From positions 1 through 30,416 of the forward strand of contig CALZJV010000169.1 in assembly GCA_945787595.1 (NCBI GenBank): a stretch of DNA of 30,416 nt. The letters run 5' to 3'. The notes beneath the pieces are model-generated. The model saw nothing but the letters and a program-made list of their open reading frames with translations, searched no databases and had not been told where the DNA came from. Position numbers and translations under genes: made by a program. Shown piece by piece: positions 1,949 through 24,871 of the stretch. Each line of letters opens with the position of its first letter. Within the stretch, counting starts at the first letter, position 1. This DNA comes from an uncultured Desulfobacterales bacterium (GTDB taxonomy: Bacteria > Desulfobacterota > Desulfobacteria > Desulfobacterales > JAFDCJ01).

Positions 1949-2239
1949 CTAGATTTTGATGACGTGGTCGAGTGTCCGAGATAACACTTTTGTTAGTCTA
2001 TTTTTTAATATAGATTTGTGAAACTTGTAAATAGGGTAAACAGTGTATTTTACAAAAAGAAATGCAGTAATAGTTAAGCCACAAAGGCCGAAGAAAAGTA
2101 ATATGATGTTTGAAATTCTGTCAAAAGGAGAGGAATTTTTAAGTGCTGAAATAATTGTAGATGCGGTATCAATAGAATTCAATAATAAACTTTGTGGCTT
2201 AGTCCATCGATTCGTAAATTCGATCACGAATTTACTCAC
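1949..2239 (-). CDS. Possible small membrane protein of unknown family
   Basis: An open frame of 96 codons that I do not recognise. Its middle, about residues 43-68, is a strongly hydrophobic stretch (IILLFFGLCGLTITAFLFV) followed by a Lys/Tyr/His-rich tail, as in a single-pass membrane protein. It is much richer in A+T than its neighbours. Its start codon and first 12 residues come from a hairpin repeat (2202-2317) also found near 22.8 kb, so the original 5' end may have been replaced by that element. No clear ribosome binding site is seen. It may be a decayed remnant or spurious. Confidence 0.25.
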   Translation of the reverse strand: MSKFVIEFTNRWTKPQSLLLNSIDTASTIISALKNSSPFDRISNIILLFFGLCGLTITAFLFVKYTVYPIYKFHKSILKNRLTKVLSRTLDHVIKI

Positions 2240-2317
2240 TCAGGACTAAGTGCTGAGTGAGCAATTAGATTTAATTAATCGAACAACATACGTTACTGTA
2301 TTTGCGAATCGAAGCAC
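2202..2317 (+). repeat. Hairpin-rich dispersed repeat B, copy 1 (116 bp)
   Basis: Matches 22782-22896 at both ends and in the centre. The ends are imperfect inverted repeats: GTCCATCGATTCG on the left and the complement of GTGCTTCGATTCG on the right. Inside are two perfect hairpins, GTAAATTCG-atca-CGAATTTAC and CTCACTCAG-9 nt-CTGAGTGAG. The remainder differs between copies. I found no target-site duplication. The structure is that of a small non-autonomous element or a structured RNA repeat; no transposase is present. Confidence 0.75.
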
Positions 2318-2423
2318 TTCGTGTCTTAGTGGCTGAATTATTACGATTGATATTGTTTTTGCCGGAATCTGATTTACTTTTATATTTTAAGGAAGATATC
2401 AGAAAAAGCGGGAGGAAATGAAT

Positions 2424-3755: not shown

Positions 3756-4026
3756 AATTTGTATATTACACCGTCATGAAACAAATTACAATAAAGATAA
3801 TCAATATGAATTAATTAAAGATAGCTATAATTATATAAAAAAAGAAATACACCACGGGCAGGCGGGCAGTAAACACCGAACAAAATCAAGCAAAATGTTT
3901 GGGATGATTTAAATAAATGGGTCTGGGCCGGGGATTTGCGATTTTTTCCAGGATAGGGCACACTGCGTAGGAATCTTGGCTGTAAAGTGGAAGCTGAAGG
4001 TCTAAGATAAATATGATAAAGTAGAA

Positions 4027-4990
4027 CTATGGTGTCAAAACAATTTTGCCGAATTGCTGACCCGCTTCCATCATCTGATAGGCCTGACGTCCTGCGCTCA
4101 GCGGCATGACTTGATGGATAACCGGTTTAAGCCTGCCGGACCACAATAATTTCATCACATCATGAAAATCCTGGTGTGATCCCATGGTACTGCCGATCAG
4201 ACTGATCTGCTTGCCGAAGATAAAGCGTATATCGATTGCGGCTTTGGGGCCGCTGGTGTTTCCCACGATGACAATTCGTCCGCCCCGGGCGACGGCTTGC
4301 ATGCTGGTGGTGATAGTGGCCTTACCCACATTATCCACCACTACATCGACACCCCGTTTCTCGGTAAGTTTATAAATCTCCTTGCCCCAATTGACCTGGG
4401 ATCGATCCAAGACCATATCGGCACCCAATTGCCGTGCCCGCTCGGATTTTTCCGGATTGGCAGCCACGACATAAACGGTGGCACCCGCCACCGGCGCGCA
4501 GGGCAGCACGATGCATCAACATGCGCCAGGCAGTTAGGGTCACTAGTATCGGTGCGGCAGCATCGACAAATTCAATCTTATCGGAAATGGCTGCCAGGTT
4601 GTCGATCGGAACCCTTAAATACTCGGCAGCACCGCCACGCATATGTTCCCCCAGAACGTGATAGTTGGGGCTGACGCTATCTTGACCGCGCCGGGCATAT
4701 TCGTCTTCAGACAGGTTTATGCCGGGATCAACCACGACCCGCTGCCCCACCTGCCAGCCCGACACATCGGGCCCGAGCCCGGCAATTTCACCGGCAACGT
4801 CGGCACCGCACCAGTGGGGCATCTCCAGATTAAGACCCGGCCAGCCTCTCCGGACCCAGATGTCCAGAAAATTGAGTGCGCAGGCGCGTACTCGAATCAG
4901 CACTTCCCCCGGCCCGGGTTCGGGATCGGGCACATCGCCATATCTTACGACATCCAATTCACCGTGTTGTTCGAAATAAAGCGCTTTCAT
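4027..4990 (-). pseudogene. Zinc-type (MDR) alcohol dehydrogenase/quinone oxidoreductase, broken by an internal deletion
   Basis: Two frames on the minus strand together make one medium-chain dehydrogenase. The first (from ATG 4990) has the GroES-like domain: FEQHGELDVVRYGDVPDP, RVRACALNFLDIWVRRG and the HWCGADVAGEI strand. The second (to TAA 4027) has the latter half of the Rossmann domain, from GATVYVVAANPEKS onward. The joint lies near 4484-4498 and the frame changes there. What should lie between ALRAG and GATVYVV, the beta-alpha unit with the glycine-rich GxGxxG nucleotide loop (about 20-25 residues), is absent. Without that loop and with the frame changed, an active NAD(P)H-binding enzyme is unlikely. 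Family members reduce or oxidise alcohols, aldehydes or quinones. It may be a true pseudogene or an assembly error. Confidence 0.82.
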
Positions 4991-5040
4991 AACAGGAAAC
5001 CTCTATAATTCGTCAATAATCAATCGCCATTCATCCTTGT

Positions 5041-5574
5041 CTATATTTTATCCGCATCAAACGCTTCCACCCAGGTTTCTATCAATTTATCCGTCCGATT
5101 TTTAAGACGGTTTGAAATAATGTTGCTCAATTTAGACATGATCATATACCCCAGAGAATGATCGTCTTCCATCATCGTCTTAAGCTCCACGGCCGGAATC
5201 GCAATCACACGGCTGGCCTCGGTACATTGTGCCGTTACGGTTCGAAGTCCGGGCCCGACCAGAGACGCCCATCCGAAAACCTGATCCGGATAAACCGTAT
5301 CGACGACGATCCACTTCTCTTCATCGACTAAACTGGCCTGAATGGATTCTTCATATTCGATTTCGGTCTTCAACACTCTGTCGGTAAAAACAATGCTCAG
5401 ATCGACTTCACCCTTTAGGAGAGCATAGAAATGCTCAGCGGGTTCTTTATAGTGAAAGACGACTTCTTCAGCTTCCAACTCAAGCACTTCTCCTTTCTGA
5501 GCAATCATTTCCAAGGCATCTGGTGCCACAGCGCTAAAAAATTTAAAACCGGCTAAAGGATTCTTTTCCGTCAC
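5041..5574 (-). CDS. Cyclic-nucleotide-binding-domain (Crp-like sensor) protein without DNA-binding domain
   Basis: A 177-residue protein consisting of a cNMP-binding beta-roll: NPLAGFKFFSAVAPDALEMIA at the start, then HYKEPAEHFYALLKGEVDLS, and DQVFGWASLVGPGLRTVTAQCTEASRVIAIPA, which matches the FGE-like phosphate-binding cassette region in position. The family's usual RxA is replaced by TVTA, so binding of cAMP or cGMP is doubtful. No helix-turn-helix follows; the C-terminus is helical (SKLSNIISNRLKNRTDKLIETW). The likely role is as a ligand-sensing module acting by protein contact. GTG 5574 is chosen because AAGGAGG lies five bases upstream. The broken dehydrogenase gene follows it on the same strand, 50 bases away. 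Confidence 0.8.
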   Translation of the reverse strand: MTEKNPLAGFKFFSAVAPDALEMIAQKGEVLELEAEEVVFHYKEPAEHFYALLKGEVDLSIVFTDRVLKTEIEYEESIQASLVDEEKWIVVDTVYPDQVFGWASLVGPGLRTVTAQCTEASRVIAIPAVELKTMMEDDHSLGYMIMSKLSNIISNRLKNRTDKLIETWVEAFDADKI

Positions 5575-6294
5575 AATAACCTCCTTGTTTTTTGCTGTTC
5601 CCGGTATGATCGAAGCAAATTTATCATAATTATTGTAGATCTCTGGGCAATCCGCCTGAGGCGGGATTTTCGGGTATTTTCAGTATCTTTAACTGATTGA
5701 ATATCTGAGGAAATTGATATTGCCCCGATGGCGGAACATACAATTGATGAGAGAGTTGTTGAGCATACAATATATAATTACCATTAATTAGAAGTAAAGG
5801 ATTATTACCTCGTCTTAAAAAATATAGCTAGTTTCCATCCATAAATGGTCTTTTTGCCCAATCTCGGCGTCAATCGGCGCGTTTGTTTGTGCGAGGTAGC
5901 CAGCTACGTCTCCGCACAAACGCTTGATTTCCTTGACATTGGACAAAAATCCGCATTTCTGGATTGGAAACACTATTTAGTGCCCAAACTGATTTTAACC
6001 GATTTATGGACGGGCACTAGCTAAATGATGCTTGACAAGAAGGGGTTAATTATTACATGTTATGCATATCAGCAGCTGACCGGATTTTTAGCAGCGGAGT
6101 GTATCGGGTATAACCTGAAGAGCGCGAATAACGTGAACCCGAATCCTGCGAAATCCCGGTTCATTTTATTCGATCCCCGTTCTAAAATCAGCGCTGCGGC
6201 CAAGCTGTCATATTCCGTCCAGGCGATGCGAACACCAGCGCTAATCTATTATATCTATACCTATCACGATTGCGATAATATCTAGCTGAGAAAA
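5575..6294. other. Intergenic region of 720 bases holding one MITE-like element
   Basis: No convincing gene. It contains the 187-bp element at 5831-6017. An 86-codon open frame at 6025-6285 has no ribosome binding site and no family resemblance and is not called. The stretch after 5640 is A+T-rich and may hold promoters for the divergent neighbours, but no clear -35/-10 pair was found. Confidence 0.5.
5831..6017 (+). mobile_element. MITE-like element A, copy 1 (187 bp, 6-bp target duplication TAGCTA)
   Basis: The element begins GTTTCCATCCATAAAT and ends with the complement of GTGCCCGTCCATAAAT, an imperfect terminal inverted repeat. It is flanked by TAGCTA at 5825-5830 and again at 6018-6023. 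A second copy of exactly the same length at 22229-22415 differs at about ten positions (roughly 95% identity) and has its own duplication, TACCTA. The centre (5879-5923) folds into a large imperfect hairpin (GCGTTTGTTTGTGCG facing CGCACAAACGC). It has no coding capacity and would need a transposase supplied in trans; none is in this window. Confidence 0.85.
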
Positions 6295-6744
6295 ATGTCA
6301 AATACCAGGCTTCCTACTTTTGCCGGGTCCCATAACCAATTCGCATTTGAAGAAATAGAGCATACTGCGGATCGGGCGTTACGCATCTACGGATCGAACT
6401 TAGAGGAACTCCTGCTCAATGCAGCGCGAGGCATGAACAGTCTTATGGTCACAAAGCATAGCCCTTGCTCTGATCTCCAGGAAAAATTCGTTGAGATCGA
6501 GGCGATGGATACTGAAAGTCTATTAGTGGACTGGTTGAGCGAACTGGCATACTGGGCGGAAATGGAAATGCTCATTTTTCAAGAATTCGAGATAGAGAGT
6601 GTGTCGCCGACCCATCTCAGGGCAAGAATGTACGGCAGCCGGATAACACAACTGGAAAAGCACATCAAGGCAGTCACTTACCACAAGCTGGATATTGTCC
6701 AAACGAAAATAGGATTGATTGCGACGGTGGTCTTTGATGTATGA
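6295..6744 (+). CDS. Archease, activator of RNA ligase RtcB
   Basis: A 149-residue protein. The archease signature opens at about residue 18, FEEIEHTADRALRIYG, followed by LEELLLNAARGMNSLM, and it closes with IKAVTYHKLDIVQTKIGLIATVVFDV. The acidic residues at the start and the terminal Asp of VFDV correspond to the metal-binding pocket of characterised archeases. Archease speeds guanylylation of RtcB and allows multiple turnovers. The rtcB gene follows 207 bases downstream on the same strand, which supports the pairing. The start at 6295 gives about 17 residues before the domain; the ribosome binding site is weak and no better start is available before the domain begins. Confidence 0.9.
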   Translation: MSNTRLPTFAGSHNQFAFEEIEHTADRALRIYGSNLEELLLNAARGMNSLMVTKHSPCSDLQEKFVEIEAMDTESLLVDWLSELAYWAEMEMLIFQEFEIESVSPTHLRARMYGSRITQLEKHIKAVTYHKLDIVQTKIGLIATVVFDV

Positions 6745-6829
6745 GGGAGGCTGAAAAAAAATAGCATCCCGCTGTCTGAACGGCAGGGTTTCGAAACTCA
6801 GCACGCTGGTAATTTAAGGTTGTTAGTTA

Positions 6830-6921
6830 CAGGTGTCAGGTTTCGGGTGTCAGGAAGGCGCGCTGCTAATACCTGAAACCTGAAAATGAAACCTAAGTAT
6901 CCGACAACGTGTTGTCAGATA
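6830..6921 (+). repeat. Composite phrase repeat ending in a 24-bp palindrome
   Basis: Left part: AGGTGTCAGG-type units (6831-6858). Right part: the facing arm ACCTGAAACCTGAAAATG (6871-6888), then AAGTA and a near-perfect palindrome at 6898-6921 (TATCCGACAACG against TGTTGTCAGATA). The same parts in the same order, on the opposite strand, are found at 25936-26165. It ends 31 bases before the rtcB start, so it lies in the rtcB leader or promoter region. Confidence 0.7.
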
Positions 6922-6951
6922 AAGGCTTCTAAGGGCCTAAGGAGGTGTCGC

Positions 6952-8419
6952 TTGGCCAACGTTCACGATTTCAAAAAAATTGATGAATACCTCTATGAGG
7001 TCCCGGCTTCTTTTCGTGAAGATATGCGGGTACCGAGATATGCGGGTACCGGCTCGATTTTATGCGGATGCAATCCTATTGGAAGGTGTCAAAAATGACC
7101 GCAGCCTGGAACAGCTGATCAATACCGCCACACTACCGGGTGCCGTCAAATACGCCCTTGCCATGCCGGATATCCACCAGGGATACGGATTTCCAATTGG
7201 CGGCGTGGTGGCCACCCAGTTACCGGACGGCGTAATTTCACCCGGTGGTGTCGGGTATGACATCAATTGCGGTGTACGTCTACTGGGGACCCGTCTGGAA
7301 CAAGACGAGATTAGCCCCTATCTGGACATTCTGGCCACGAGCATCTACGCCAATTGTCCCAGCGGTGTCGGAAAAGGCGGCAATATCAAACTCAAGTCCG
7401 GCGAATTGGATCGGGTAATCGAATTGGGCTCGACCTGGGCCTTGAAACGCGGCTTGGCGACCGAAGCCGACCTGGAACGTACCGAAGAAAACGGATGTTT
7501 GGCGGGAGCGGATGCAGGCAAGGTCAGCCCGCGGGCCAAAGATCGCGGTAAAGGACAGGTAGGAACCCTGGGAGCCGGTAATCACTTCATTGAAATCGAT
7601 GTGGTGGACAAGGTTATCGATGAAGCCGCTGCTAGACGTATGGGGCTTTTTGAAAAGCAGATTGCGGTTCAGATTCATTGCGGCTCGCGCGGACTCGGCC
7701 ACCAGGTATGCAGTGACTATGTCAAACGTTTCCAGAAATCGATTCGTCGTTACGGTTATAACCTACCGGACAGGGAGCTGGTTTGCGCACCGCTTTCCAG
7801 TTCGGAAGGTGGGGATTATCTGGCAGCTATGAAAGGGGCGGCCAATTACGCCTTTGCAAACCGTCAGGTACTAGCCAGTCATATTCGACGCAGTTTCGAA
7901 CAGACGCTGGCGGGTAAACTAAAAAATCACCATCTATACCAGATTTACGACATCGCTCACAACATGGCAAAAGTCGAAACCCATATCGTCGACGGCAGAC
8001 AGCTTAAGCTTTGTGTTCATCGCAAAGGCGCCACCCGCGCTTTCGGCCCCGGCTCAGCGGAACTGCCCGCCGTATATCGCGATATCGGGCAGCCGGTCCT
8101 GGTGCCCGGCTCAATGGGTACTGCCAGCTGGGTGTTAGTGGGTACGCAAAACTCAATGACACAGACCTTTGGTTCGACCTGCCACGGCGCCGGTCGAAGC
8201 ATGAGTCGAAAGAAAGCCAAAAAGTCGGTACATGGAGCAGGCTTACGAGATCAGCTCGAATCACGTGGCATCCACGTGCGTGCCGGCAGCATGTCAGGTC
8301 TGGCTGAAGAAGCACCGACGGCTTACAAGGACGTCAATCGGGTCGTCGATGTCGTGCACGGCGCCGGTATCGCCAGGAAGGTGGCACGATTGACGCCGGT
8401 AGCTGTTATCAAAGGATAG
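6952..8419 (+). CDS. rtcB: RNA-splicing ligase RtcB, 5' reading frame disrupted by a 16-bp tandem duplication
   Basis: RtcB joins RNA 2',3'-cyclic-phosphate or 3'-phosphate ends to 5'-OH ends using GTP and Mn(2+), in RNA repair or tRNA splicing. Visible active-site motifs are DINCGVR (metal Cys), [37 protein letters not shown] and [10 protein letters not shown], which has the histidine that is guanylylated in the family. The natural N-terminus begins at TTG 6952, six bases after AAGGAGG, and reads [15 protein letters not shown] up to MRVP, as in long (about 480-residue) homologues. A 16-bp repeat (7020-7035 and 7036-7051) then shifts the frame by one; removing one unit joins it exactly to [16 protein letters not shown]. 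As it stands, translation of the main frame would have to start inside, for example at ATG 7040, or use frameshifting. Archease lies upstream. Confidence 0.9.
7020..7051 (+). repeat. 16-bp tandem duplication inside rtcB
   Basis: AGATATGCGGGTACCG occurs twice in direct succession. Both copies encode the MRVP segment of RtcB, one in each frame. Because 16 is not a multiple of three, the duplication alone explains the break between the N-terminal and main reading frames. Confidence 0.9.
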
Positions 8420-8495: not shown

Positions 8496-8705
8496 AATTT
8501 AATATTGAATATTGAAGATTGAAGATTTGTGGATGTCGCTCTCCGAGGCGTAGGCGCTACAACCCCTACGAGCCGGAGGCTTCGCTCTGCCTTTTTTATG
8601 ATCTTTTTTAATAATTGATCCCGCCGGCTTCCGGCTCGTAGAGCGCCTACAGCTCGGAGAGAGGCGGACCTTAAATATTCAATCTTCAATCGACAATCTT
8701 GAATC
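8496..8705. repeat. Nested inverted repeat (GAATATTGAAGATT arms outside, GC-rich arms inside)
   Basis: Outer arms: TTGAATATTGAAGATTGAAG (8504-8523) facing TATTCAATCTTCAATC (about 8675-8690). Inner arms: CTCTCCGAGGCGTAGGCGC onward (8539-8582) facing GGCTTCCGGCTCGTAGAGCG onward (8625-8665). The loop holds CTTTTTTATGATCTTTTTT. The inner GC arms and parts of the loop recur, on the opposite strand, at 24655-24822; the loop module and a GAATATTGAA arm recur at 17806-17880. This fills most of the rtcB-usp intergenic region. Confidence 0.75.
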
Positions 8706-16843: not shown

Positions 16844-17598
16844 TTCTCTTAGATGACAGAAGACAGATGACGGAAGACAGAATACGATGATCTGACGCTT
16901 CGAAGGCCGAGCCTGGGTTGAGCAGCGAACTGCGAAACAGCAAAATATCCTACCGCATCCCGAGACGCGCCCTTCGCTCGTGAGCTCAGGATGGAACGAC
17001 CAAGCCGAGTCGAATATCGAAGACCGGCAATTGCGCCATCTGTCTTTTGAATTCCTTAGTTCGACAATTTATATCCGATATGCATTATTCGATATTCGGC
17101 CGCTCCTGACCAAGATTGGTAATGCTGGTTGAGGATGGCCATCCGTCATCTGACTTCCACATTCCGCCTTCCAAAATCCGTCCTCCGTCATCTGTCTTCC
17201 GTCATCTGTCTTCTGATCTCCGTCCTCCGTCCTCCGCCATCTGCCCTCTGTCATCCGTCCTAAGAGACACATTTGTGCCAAAAAATAATCTGAGACTGTA
17301 TTGCAATGATTTTTTTATTATGATATTCAGCGATTACCTCTCAGTGAGTTGAATTTTCTTTTAATTCGTAATATTTTCATGTATCGCATATTTAATAGGT
17401 AATATCCTTTTCGCTGTTTTTTAAACATAGAGACCGGCCTGTAACAATCCGAAATTAGCTAACTACAAGTCTACGGCTATCACGCAGTCACATCTGGCAC
17501 AAATTTTGTATCTGAGGTGGAATAAATCAGATTCAATCCGGCTAACATGGCCCTGCCATCGTGCCCCGGACTTCAACCCAACCGGAGAGTGGAAGAGC
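16844..17598. other. Long intergenic region with phrase-like inverted repeats
   Basis: 755 bases without a convincing gene. GACAGAAGACAGATGACGG (about 16858-16876) faces an extended pyrimidine-rich array at 17146-17265 built from CCGTCATCTGTCTTCCGTCC-like units. Between them, TCGAATATCGAA (near 17009) faces TTCGATATTCGG (near 17088). After 17280 the sequence becomes A+T-rich up to the small gene at 17599. Short frames within the array are products of the repeat. Confidence 0.65.
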
Positions 17599-21257: not shown

Positions 21258-22229
21258 ATGCTGGTTCTCGGTTTACAAGGCAGTCCCAGAAAGAAGGGAA
21301 ATACGAATTTCCTGCTGCAAGCGTTTATGAAATCGGCAGGGAATATGGGTGCACGCACCCATATTATTGATGTCACCCGAAAAAATATTATTCCCTGCAA
21401 GGAATTCGTCGTTTGTGAAAAAAAAGGCTATTGTCCGATTGATGATGACGTCCGAGATGAAATATATCCTCTGTTGCGACAGGCGGAAGTTGTGGTCATC
21501 GCCACCCCCATATTTTTCTACAACATGACGGCCCAGCTTAAGGCCGTCATCGATCGTTGCCAAACGTTCTGGGCCAGAAAATATAAGCTCAGACTGAAAG
21601 ACCCCGGCGCGAATATGCGACGTGGATTTCTACTCGCAGTGGGTGCGACCAAAGGAAAGAACTTATTTGAAGGTCTCAATCTGACAAGCCAGTATTTTTT
21701 TGATGCCATTGGGGCCAAATTTGAAGGCAGCCTGACATATCGGGGAATTGAAGGCCCCAAGGATATGGCCGGGCATCCGTCGGTTCAGGATGATGTCGAA
21801 AAAGCGGTGCAAGGCATTTTAGAGCCGTTTAACGGCAGGAAAAAAGTGCTGTTTGCCTGTCGCGAGAACGCCTGTCGCAGCCAAATGGCCAGTGCATTTG
21901 CTCAATCTCTGGCCGGTGATAAACTGGAAGTGCTCAATGCCGGAAGCGAACCCGCCGACAAGGTTCACCCGGAAATGGTCACGGTCATGCATGAAAAAGG
22001 TATCGACATGGGATTTCGGACCCCTAGAACGATTGATGAAGTACTTTTATACGATACTCCCGAAATAATCATCACCATGGGCTGTGCCGAACAGTGCCCC
22101 TTTGTGCCGGGTGCTCGCAAGCTGGATTGGGATCTGCCGGATCCTGCCGGAAAATCCATAGAATTCATGCGCGATGTTCGCGATGAAATTGAAAAAAGAG
22201 TGCAAGATTTGATCCGTGAGATTACCTAG
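21258..22229 (+). CDS. Fusion of NADPH-dependent FMN reductase-type flavodoxin fold and arsenate reductase (LMW phosphatase type)
   Basis: 323 residues in two domains. Residues 1-190 form an iron-sulfur-flavoprotein/FMN-reductase domain: GLQGSPRKKGNTNFLL binds the FMN phosphate, TPIFFYNMTAQLKAVIDR is the second signature, and C47, C53 and C59 (CKEFVVCEKKGYC) are in place for a cluster or disulfide. Residues 195-323 are an ArsC of the low-molecular-weight phosphatase fold: P-loop CRENACR (C201, R207), second cysteines C276 and C280 in GCAEQC, and acid DWDLPDP. The second domain would reduce arsenate to arsenite; the flavin domain might recycle it. No arsR, arsB or acr3 gene is nearby. The stop codon TAG is completed by the first base of the downstream 187-bp element. 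Confidence 0.9.
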   Translation: MLVLGLQGSPRKKGNTNFLLQAFMKSAGNMGARTHIIDVTRKNIIPCKEFVVCEKKGYCPIDDDVRDEIYPLLRQAEVVVIATPIFFYNMTAQLKAVIDRCQTFWARKYKLRLKDPGANMRRGFLLAVGATKGKNLFEGLNLTSQYFFDAIGAKFEGSLTYRGIEGPKDMAGHPSVQDDVEKAVQGILEPFNGRKKVLFACRENACRSQMASAFAQSLAGDKLEVLNAGSEPADKVHPEMVTVMHEKGIDMGFRTPRTIDEVLLYDTPEIIITMGCAEQCPFVPGARKLDWDLPDPAGKSIEFMRDVRDEIEKRVQDLIREIT

Positions 22230-22415
22230 TTTCCATCCACAAATGGTCTTTTTGCCCAATCTCGGCGTCAATCGGCGCGTTTGATTGTGCGACGTAGCCA
22301 GCTACGTCTCCGCACAACCGCTTGATTTCCTTGACCTTGGACAAAAATCCGAATTTCTGGATTGAAAACACTATTGAGTGACCAAACTGATTTTAACCGA
22401 TTTATGGATGGGCAC
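22229..22415 (+). mobile_element. MITE-like element A, copy 2 (187 bp, 6-bp target duplication TACCTA)
   Basis: Same length and orientation as 5831-6017, with about ten substitutions and no gaps. Ends are GTTTCCATCCACAAAT and the complement of GTGCCCATCCATAAAT. TACCTA flanks it at 22223-22228 and 22416-22421. The left junction lies inside the stop codon of the fusion gene; without the element the sequence would read ACC-TAA, so the encoded protein would end at the same residue. Confidence 0.85.
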
Positions 22416-22593
22416 TACCTAATGAGATGTTCAAGCTTATTGCCGGATCCGGGTCCGTAAAAGAGACGCAGAAATAGTCTTGCAAAACGCGGCTGATTTG
22501 TTATTAAGGAATGCGCATGGCCATCGAATAAATCAATCAACTTCGACAATTCGGCCCCAAGGGCTAAAACAATCAAATAAAAGGAGGAAAAGA

Positions 22594-22752: not shown

Positions 22753-22781
22753 AAGCAGCCTTAGTTCTTGTGTGAAACTTA

Positions 22782-22896
22782 GTCCATCGATTCGTAGATA
22801 CGGTGACGTATGCACCCACTCAGGACTTAGTGCTGAGTAAGCCATTGGCAAGATTGGCCAATCATTAAATGTCAATGAAATTGCGAATCGAAGCAC
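22782..22896 (+). repeat. Hairpin-rich dispersed repeat B, copy 2 (115 bp)
   Basis: Matches 2202-2317 at the ends and the central CACTCAGGACT-AGTGCTGAGT hairpin. The first hairpin differs in sequence but keeps most pairing: GTAGATACG-gtga-CGTATGCAC, with one paired position changed from T-A to A-T. It starts 29 bases after the rubredoxin stop. Confidence 0.75.
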
Positions 22897-22915
22897 TTAG
22901 CTAAACTTATAATTT

Positions 22916-24537: not shown

Positions 24538-24871
24538 GCGGGCGGTGGGTCGAACCGTGGTTGGTTAAAACCTGCTTTCTATTGCATTATTACTTTTAAA
24601 AGGTGATCCCACTTTTATTCCTCTTAAATTTTGCATTTTAGAATTTGGAATTAAGGTCCGCCTCTCTCCGAGCTGCAGGCGAGCCGGAAGCCGGCGGATC
24701 GATTTAATAAAAAATGATAAAGCAAAGCGATAGAACAAATCCGCAATCCCTCCGGGGCGTAGGCCCCTATGGCCCCTCCGGCTTCCGGCTCGTAGAGCCT
24801 ACAGCTCGGAGAGGCCGGAGGCCAAGATCTTAAACCTAAAATTTCCTCTAAAAACTGATTAAGAGGCTGTC
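24538..24871. other. Intergenic region of 334 bases with GC-rich inverted repeat
   Basis: Arm GGTCCGCCTCTCTCCGAGCT (24655-24674), continuing to 24699, faces CCGGCTTCCGGCTCGTAGAG (about 24778-24797), continuing to 24822. The loop has AATAAAAAATGATAAAGCAA. This is the opposite-strand counterpart of the repeat at 8496-8705. No gene is seen. Confidence 0.65.

What the first reader, a model, noticed from the sequence alone, without database searches (positions are those of the whole stretch)
5825..6023. Two-copy 187-bp MITE-like element with clean 6-bp target duplications
Seen: 5831-6017 and 22229-22415 have identical length, roughly 95% identity with no gaps, imperfect terminal inverted repeats and a central hairpin. 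Each is bordered by its own 6-bp direct repeat, TAGCTA in one and TACCTA in the other. The borders differ between copies but agree within each copy, which is what transposition predicts. Inference: a young non-autonomous DNA transposon mobilised in trans by a transposase elsewhere in the genome. The targets share the form TA-S-CTA, suggesting sequence preference.
Basis: partly seen in the sequence, partly recalled or inferred. Interest (0 to 1): 0.7.

Follow-up and report, generated by a model that had tools for sequence, protein, structure and literature searches.

The report
Order-wide bacterial miniature transposon family
The 187-bp repeat is a real miniature jumping element that probably hitch-hikes on a known kind of bacterial transposase; relatives of it are scattered through many genomes of sulfate-reducing Desulfobacterales, and one of the two insertions is missing, with the target site intact, in a related genome.

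Summary
Copies 5831-6017 and 22229-22415 match at 177 of 187 positions without gaps and carry private 6-bp duplications, TAGCTA and TACCTA. A relative (G005) has the copy-1 locus without the insert and with a single TAGCTA: a clean empty site. Copy 2 is absent from the same locus in G171. The family is far larger than two copies: 135 of 389 genomes from one order match (0 of 200 in an unrelated order). Of 57 copies with both ends recognised, 25 have perfect 6/6 duplications and 42 at least 5/6 (shuffled mean for perfect ones 1.2), consensus TANCTA. I found the likely parent: a 1.67-kb insertion sequence with like ends and 6-7 bp duplications, encoding an ISNCY-family transposase (485 bits, cut-off 325; ISDol1 subgroup by recall). 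Its end in G005 matches the window element's right end at 23 of 27 bases. Not foreseen: the element's interior keeps its self-complementarity through many two-sided changes, around a nearly invariant unpaired TCC. Transposition in trans is inferred, not shown; the window's own genome is not held.

The parts
5831..6017 (+). Copy 1 of the 187-bp MITE, GTTTCC...GGGCAC
   Evidence: empty site in G005
5825..5830 (+). Left target duplication of copy 1, TAGCTA
   Evidence: single TAGCTA at the empty site in G005
6018..6023 (+). Right target duplication of copy 1, TAGCTA
22229..22415 (+). Copy 2 of the MITE, 177 of 187 identical to copy 1
   Evidence: no insert at this locus in G171
22223..22228 (+). 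Left target duplication of copy 2, TACCTA; its last TA plus the element's first G form the TAG stop codon of the ORF 21258-22229
22416..22421 (+). Right target duplication of copy 2, TACCTA
5831..5971 (+). A-unit of copy 1: long near-palindrome GTTTCC...GGAAAC; its inner end was followed by a duplication (5/6 or better) in 0 of 81 places
5880..5922 (+). Central hairpin of copy 1 with two-sided pair changes across copies and an unpaired TCC at 5911-5913
5980..6017 (+). B-unit of copy 1: GTGCCC...GGGCAC hairpin that supplies the working right end; its last 27 bases match the IS end in G005 at 23 of 27
22278..22320 (+). Central hairpin of copy 2 (same columns as in copy 1)
22378..22415 (+). B-unit of copy 2

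Best explanation
The 187-bp repeat is a MITE of Desulfobacterales mobilised in trans by the DDE transposase of an ISNCY-family insertion sequence of the ISDol1 type. The transposase (inferred step) recognises the outer ends GTTTCC/GTGCCC-ATCCATAAAT and joins the element to a 6-bp (sometimes 7-bp) staggered cut at TANCTA-like sites, which gives the duplications (duplications shown, enzyme inferred). The element is nested: an A-unit with two end-like termini of which the inner one is no longer used, plus a short B-unit that carries the right end now used (end use shown by the duplications; origin by an added or captured end inferred). Insertions sit mostly between genes by my crude gene calls; because the target ends in TA and the element starts with G, an insertion in a stop codon rebuilds the stop as TAG, as copy 2 did.
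For: Empty site for copy 1 in G005: two match blocks of contig C847 (bases 1025-2731 and 1-1030) meet window 5830 and 6018 and overlap by exactly 6 bases, one TAGCTA left. Copy-2 locus in G171 has no insert. Duplications: 25 of 57 copies perfect, 42 of 57 with at least 5/6; re-pairing the real flanks at random gives a mean of 1.24 and a maximum of 6 perfect ones in 2000 trials. Consensus TANCTA in the 25 perfect ones. Parent: in G074, six identical 1671-bp copies with different flanks, ends GTGTCCATCC, duplications TAGGTA, TAAATA, TAGCTA, TAGTTA, TAGTTA and a 7-bp TAGTACC. Its 450-aa protein scores 484.9 bits for NCBIfam's ISNCY transposase (cut-off 325) and hits Pfam DDE_Tnp_1 and DUF772. Of 30 related transposase loci fetched, 16 gave an end pair 1.60-1.71 kb apart; of the 15 of these with both flanks present, 10 have a perfect duplication. 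BLAST of two MITEs against these 16 loci gave 9 matches, in 6 of the 16 loci; all 9 lie at MITE ends and carry the letters of the IS ends. G005 carries a C-terminal transposase piece, 78% identical, at a contig end, and the end downstream of it matches the window MITE's right end at 23 of 27. Genomes with a close transposase match (E<=1e-40, threshold set after seeing the list) carry the MITE more often: 20 of 31 against 115 of 358, Fisher p 0.0006 (kinship not corrected).
Against: G002, with at least 40 copies, and G171 gave no transposase match at E<=1e-10, so there the parent is lost, unassembled or different. Similarity found between MITE and IS is limited to about 20 bp at the ends. 15 of 57 copies have fewer than 5 of 6 matching border bases, and 29 of 86 distinct complete A-units have no recognisable right end. 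11 of 31 genomes with a close transposase match show no MITE match. Of the 30 transposase loci, 14 gave no plausible end pair; most are fragments, but L227 and L229, near full-length matches at 38 and 36% identity, are among them, so more distant members have other ends. No transposition was observed, and the window's own genome is not held. The copy-2 locus in G171 differs right after the stop-codon region, so it shows absence, not a base-for-base empty site.
Confidence: 0.91

Rival explanations
1. The repeat is a conserved structured RNA or cis-regulatory element that happens to be repeated, and not a transposon.
For: Strong fold; two-sided pair changes across 32 aligned A-units, 12 pairs, 71 cells, 0 of 500 shuffles as high.
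Against: Private duplications and an empty site in a relative. No Rfam match at gathering level in the window; the permissive search of 5780-6070 gave one hit, to a viral 3'UTR family, E 0.012 but 16.5 bits against a cut-off of 174.8, which I take as chance. A MITE may still carry a functional fold.
Confidence: 0.04
2. A MITE, but moved by another transposase family, the end similarity to the ISNCY/ISDol1-type elements being coincidental.
For: Two genomes with many close copies (G002, G171) show no such transposase.
Against: Like ends, same duplication length (6, sometimes 7) and same TANNTA-like target in both; 9 of 9 BLAST matches at the ends. The nine DDE_Tnp_1 loci of G002, G005 and G001 returned by the family search show no such ends. 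Other transposase families of these genomes were not searched.
Confidence: 0.06
3. A REP/BIME-like hairpin repeat spread by a single-strand (RAYT/TnpA-REP) transposase.
For: The B-unit resembles a REP hairpin and also occurs without an A-unit.
Against: REP transposition leaves no target duplication (recalled); most copies with two ends here have one. RAYT genes were not searched for.
Confidence: 0.02
4. On the fold only: the two-sided pair changes come from template-switch correction of imperfect palindromes, not from selection.
For: Such correction of quasi-palindromes is known in bacteria (recalled) and would act on any long inverted repeat; changes on both sides also occur in the outer helices, not only in the hairpin.
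Against: The unpaired TCC, which faces no partner, stays nearly invariant (T 32, C 29, C 31 of 32), while unchecked correction should erase such asymmetry. It is a soft argument: neighbouring paired columns are nearly invariant too.
Confidence: 0.55

Closest known systems
ISNCY family, ISDol1-type insertion sequences (subgroup name by recall from ISfinder; family by NCBIfam NF033593)
   Same: Ends GTGTCCATCC..., 6-7 bp duplications, mostly TANNTA
   Different: The window element is 187 bp, has no transposase gene, and shares only about 20 bp at the ends with the IS
Bacterial MITEs in general, e.g. the 187-nt MITE of Microcystis tied to ISL3 (PMC11448079, passages seen)
   Same: Small, inverted ends, duplications, hairpin, ends shared with a full IS; the equal length is a coincidence
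   Different: Other parent family (ISL3, 8-nt duplications) and other host phylum
Hairpin MITEs of Thiomargarita (PMC4853749, passages seen)
   Same: Many copies, hairpin-forming, direct repeats
   Different: That paper reports no candidate parent in ISfinder for its two MITE families and proposes a PD-(D/E)XK (Yhg-A) element for one of them; here a DDE parent family is proposed
REP/BIME elements
   Same: Short hairpin units; B-unit alone in places
   Different: Target duplications present here

Membership tests
MITE (non-autonomous DNA transposon) | Short, no transposase gene | tested here: met
   187 bp, room for at most 62 codons; longest ORF reading through copy 1 is 59 aa (5845-6024) and is not kept in copy 2
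MITE (non-autonomous DNA transposon) | Terminal inverted repeats | tested here: met
   imperfect, 15 of 22 outer bases in copy 1
MITE (non-autonomous DNA transposon) | Target-site duplication | tested here: met
   both window copies; 42 of 57 copies with at least 5/6, 15 of 57 without; empty site
MITE (non-autonomous DNA transposon) | Multiple dispersed copies | tested here: met
   G002: 155 candidates, 40 scored, 40 matched; 135 of 389 genomes, at most two or so candidates scored per genome
MITE (non-autonomous DNA transposon) | Ends shared with an autonomous element | tested here: met
MITE (non-autonomous DNA transposon) | Mobilised in trans by that element's transposase | not testable with these tools
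   needs a transposition assay
ISNCY, ISDol1 type (for the parent IS) | Transposase of the family | tested here: met
   NF033593 484.9 bits, cut-off 325
ISNCY, ISDol1 type (for the parent IS) | About 1.6-1.9 kb, 6-7 bp duplications (values recalled) | tested here: met
   1671 bp with 6 or 7 bp duplications in G074; 1.60-1.71 kb for 16 of 30 loci
ISNCY, ISDol1 type (for the parent IS) | Identity with ISfinder's ISDol1 entry itself | not testable with these tools
   ISfinder is not on hand; one paper naming ISDol1 was found, which gives no ends
REP/BIME | No target duplication (recalled) | tested here: not met
   duplications present
REP/BIME | RAYT transposase in the genome | not tested
   not searched
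Known structured RNA (Rfam) | Match at the family cut-off | tested here: not met
   0 matches in the window

The most novel reading that the evidence does not exclude
The interior of this MITE family is not passive filler: a hairpin with a nearly invariant unpaired TCC is kept by compensating changes across many genomes of the order, so the folded strand itself (DNA cruciform or transcript) is used, either by the transposition complex or as a regulatory or protective RNA at the host genes; a sister family keeps the arms while exchanging the central hairpin.
Probability: 0.28. Interest if true: 0.65.

Novelty: new member of a known kind. Interest (0 to 1): 0.42.

Why it matters
It names the likely driver of an abundant repeat in Desulfobacterales, ties it to a little-studied transposase group, and gives a natural marker (insertions with empty sites) for these mostly uncultured bacteria. 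The compensating changes inside the element and its tolerance of stop codons make two questions testable: whether MITE interiors are selected as folds, and whether the element's first base spares host genes by rebuilding stop codons.

Tried and rejected
Core 19-mer in viral contigs: 0 hits. Element against plasmids and phages: no match. Own genome: not held. Core pattern in genome contigs: 7 stretches, of which L003 and L004 (a Clostridia and a Burkholderiaceae MAG) were judged chance, as their genomes gave no element match. DDE_Tnp_1 loci in G002, G005 and G001 as parent: none of the nine has matching ends. A strict end-pair scan of 1.53 Mb of G002, these nine loci and the window returned five elements, all of 187 bp, and no IS. 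Inner A-end as a working end: 0 of 81 places have at least 5/6 there (one search had counted 0 of 94, with some places read twice). B-units without an A-unit: those looked at in G002 and G005 show no clear duplications, so I take them as remnants.

Recount: one search listed 95 complete A-units; because the A-unit is nearly palindromic, 9 of these were the same place read on the other strand, so 86 are distinct; the 57 with both ends and their duplication counts are unchanged.

Stop-codon preference: of 42 insertions with at least 5/6 duplications, 33 had enough flank; 10 lie at the stop of a frame open for at least 100 codons, 22 between called ORFs and 1 inside one. Two of the 10 (L143, L156) also lie inside ORFs of 392 and 404 codons on the other strand. 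A cruder call counting any ORF of 100 aa or more put 12 of 34 insertions inside an ORF. Control TANCTA sites in G002: 17 of 315 at a stop by the same definition, 209 of 315 inside called ORFs; an earlier count over 333 sites gave 18, against 10 of 34 insertions, binomial p 8e-6. Part of the contrast is simply fewer insertions in genes. Against the non-genic control sites (10 at a called stop, 96 intergenic; definition slightly different from that used for the insertions) Fisher p is 0.004; with the same-definition 17 it would be weaker. I call it suggestive only.

Sister family (141 bp in 8 of 9 copies): 8 of 9 copies have at least 5/6, but shuffled pairs reach 8 too because the targets are alike, so this small set is weak by itself.

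Alignment for the fold: 37 A-units were picked from the 95 by a similarity filter; six were left out of the alignment (three other-strand readings, two of the sister family, and L188:705-849, left out by oversight) and window copy 2 was added, giving 32, from the window and 18 genomes.

Literature: 'ISDol1' 1 paper (one passage seen); 'ISNCY' with 'miniature inverted-repeat' 2 papers and with 'MITEs' 5; Desulfo- terms with MITE terms (5, 2, 0, 0 and 5 papers). Passages were seen of PMC8147514, PMC11448079, PMC4853749 and PMC9208149; of the others only listings. No ISNCY-derived MITE of this order appeared there. Subscription journals and ISfinder were not searched.

Full report
OBSERVATION. 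Copy 1 with its borders folds far better than shuffled sequence. The longest ORF reading through copy 1 has 59 aa and is not kept in copy 2. There is no Rfam match at gathering level.

MOBILITY. The strongest evidence is an empty site. In G005, the genome of locus L005 (record title: uncultured Desulfobacterales bacterium FCS_M_Desulfobacterota_02), contig C847 matches window 4002-5830 and 6018-7029 at 86%; the two blocks overlap by exactly 6 bases in G005, and the alignment to the window with the insert and one duplication left out runs without a gap through a single TAGCTA. The copy-2 locus in G171 (86% over window 21258-22227) has no insert after the same gene end, although the sequence downstream differs.

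FAMILY. In G002 (record title: Desulfobacterales bacterium MAG8) 155 candidates were seen, 40 scored, and all 40 matched. In the order of the unrelated genome G004 it is 0 of 200; base composition there may differ. From the loci in hand I extracted 86 distinct complete A-units (95 readings); 57 had a recognisable right end. Of these 57, 25 have a perfect 6-bp duplication, 17 have 5/6, and 15 fewer. One of the 15, L028, has a 7-bp duplication TAGCCTA. The 25 perfect ones give T 18, A 22, any, C 19, T 23, A 22.

PARENT. A pattern search for the end in four genomes showed convergent end pairs 1671 bp apart in G074. The six copies are identical over 1671 bp and differ outside; duplications are TAGGTA, TAAATA, TAGCTA, TAGTTA, TAGTTA and TAGTACC, two copies being in tandem and sharing one. 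The 450-aa product is an ISNCY transposase by NCBIfam (484.9 bits, cut-off 325), with DDE_Tnp_1 and DUF772 in Pfam. By recall, the 3,944,167-bp chromosome is that of Desulfosudis (Desulfococcus) oleovorans Hxd3 and the group is ISfinder's ISDol1. The protein matches in 67 of 389 genomes at E<=1e-10. Of 30 loci fetched, 16 (L204-L219) gave an end pair at 1.60-1.71 kb. Of the 15 with both flanks present, 10 have a perfect duplication, L210 has 5/6, L208 and L215 4/6, and L218 and L219 three matching bases (where several pairs were possible the duplication score chose). Of the other 14, L228 and L231 gave implausible pairs and 12 none; the 12 include L227 and L229, distant near full-length matches (38 and 36%), so such ends are not general for the wider family. 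A BLAST of two MITEs against the 16 loci is free of that choice: 9 matches in 6 of the 16 loci, all at MITE ends and with the letters of the IS ends. In G005 a transposase piece sits at a contig end, and the end downstream of it matches the window MITE's right end at 23 of 27 bases (0 of 20000 letter shuffles).

ANATOMY. The element is nested. The A-unit (5831-5971) is nearly palindromic, GTTTCC...GGAAAC; its inner end was followed by a duplication in 0 of 81 places. A short B-unit (5980-6017) supplies the right end that the duplications mark. A sister family, 141 bp in 8 of 9 copies with both ends, keeps the A-unit's arms, has a different centre, and uses both A-type ends directly. I infer that the 187-bp form arose when an A-type element gained a second right end.

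FOLD. On 32 A-units from the window and 18 genomes (7 of them from G002, 6 from G074), a structure of 33 pairs is formed in 91.9% of cells, with 12 pairs and 71 cells changed on both sides; 0 of 500 shuffles reach these values, and sliding the partners by 1-3 columns drops pairing to 32-45%. The structure was derived from these sequences, which favours it in the slide control, and related sequences can exceed the shuffles without structure. On a tree built without the tested columns, the 12 pairs need 45 changes among standard pair types (short sequences, uncertain tree, one-sided changes included). Three columns left unpaired between helices, TCC, are nearly invariant (T 32, C 29, C 31 of 32). 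An alternative outer helix shares columns with the one counted. Selection on a fold and palindrome correction by template switching both remain possible.

CONTEXT. Copy 1 lies between divergent ORFs (5041-5574 minus, 6295-6744 plus). Copy 2 lies between the FMN-reductase/arsenate-reductase ORF and a rubredoxin gene; TA of the duplication and the element's first G form the stop codon. Of 33 insertions scored, 10 lie at stops of long open frames, 22 between called ORFs, 1 inside; a cruder ORF definition put 12 of 34 inside an ORF. Stop-site enrichment is suggestive only (see Tried and rejected).

VERDICT. An ordinary kind of thing, well supported: a MITE. What is new, as far as the searches named in Tried and rejected show, is its spread through an order, its ISNCY/ISDol1-type parent and the conserved fold.

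Noticed in passing
window 2198-2319 and 22778-22898: A second dispersed repeat pair (69 nt at 84%, then 28 nt at 86%) starting CTTAGTCCATCGATTCGTA, nature unknown.
   Followed up: no
window 8604-8697 and 24628-24714: Inverted repeat pairs of 67 and 35 nt with a CCGCCGGCTTCCGGCTCG-like motif, and related direct repeats at 24774-24813.
   Followed up: no
window 16851-16886 and 17142-17260: Degenerate short repeats of the form TCCGTCATCTGTCTTC in both orientations.
   Followed up: no
window 4027-4990, minus strand: A quinone-oxidoreductase-like gene appears split over two overlapping frames (4370-4990 and 4027-4509), a possible frameshift; only the first frame was scanned for families.
   Followed up: no
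L168, sister-family copy: The flanks are an inverted repeat of at least 14 bases (ATCATTTTTATCTA ... TAGATAAAAATGAT) rather than a direct duplication.
   Followed up: no
L023 and L162: The element's last three bases are replaced by target sequence, giving 12-base direct repeats that begin with GGG, as if joined at a short homology.
   Followed up: no
G074:C1:2207811-2211158 (L187): Two parent IS copies in tandem, sharing one 6-bp target duplication.
   Followed up: partly
window 21258-22229: ORF joining an NADPH-dependent FMN reductase-like part with an arsenate reductase-like part; similar DNA in many genomes of the order.
   Followed up: partly
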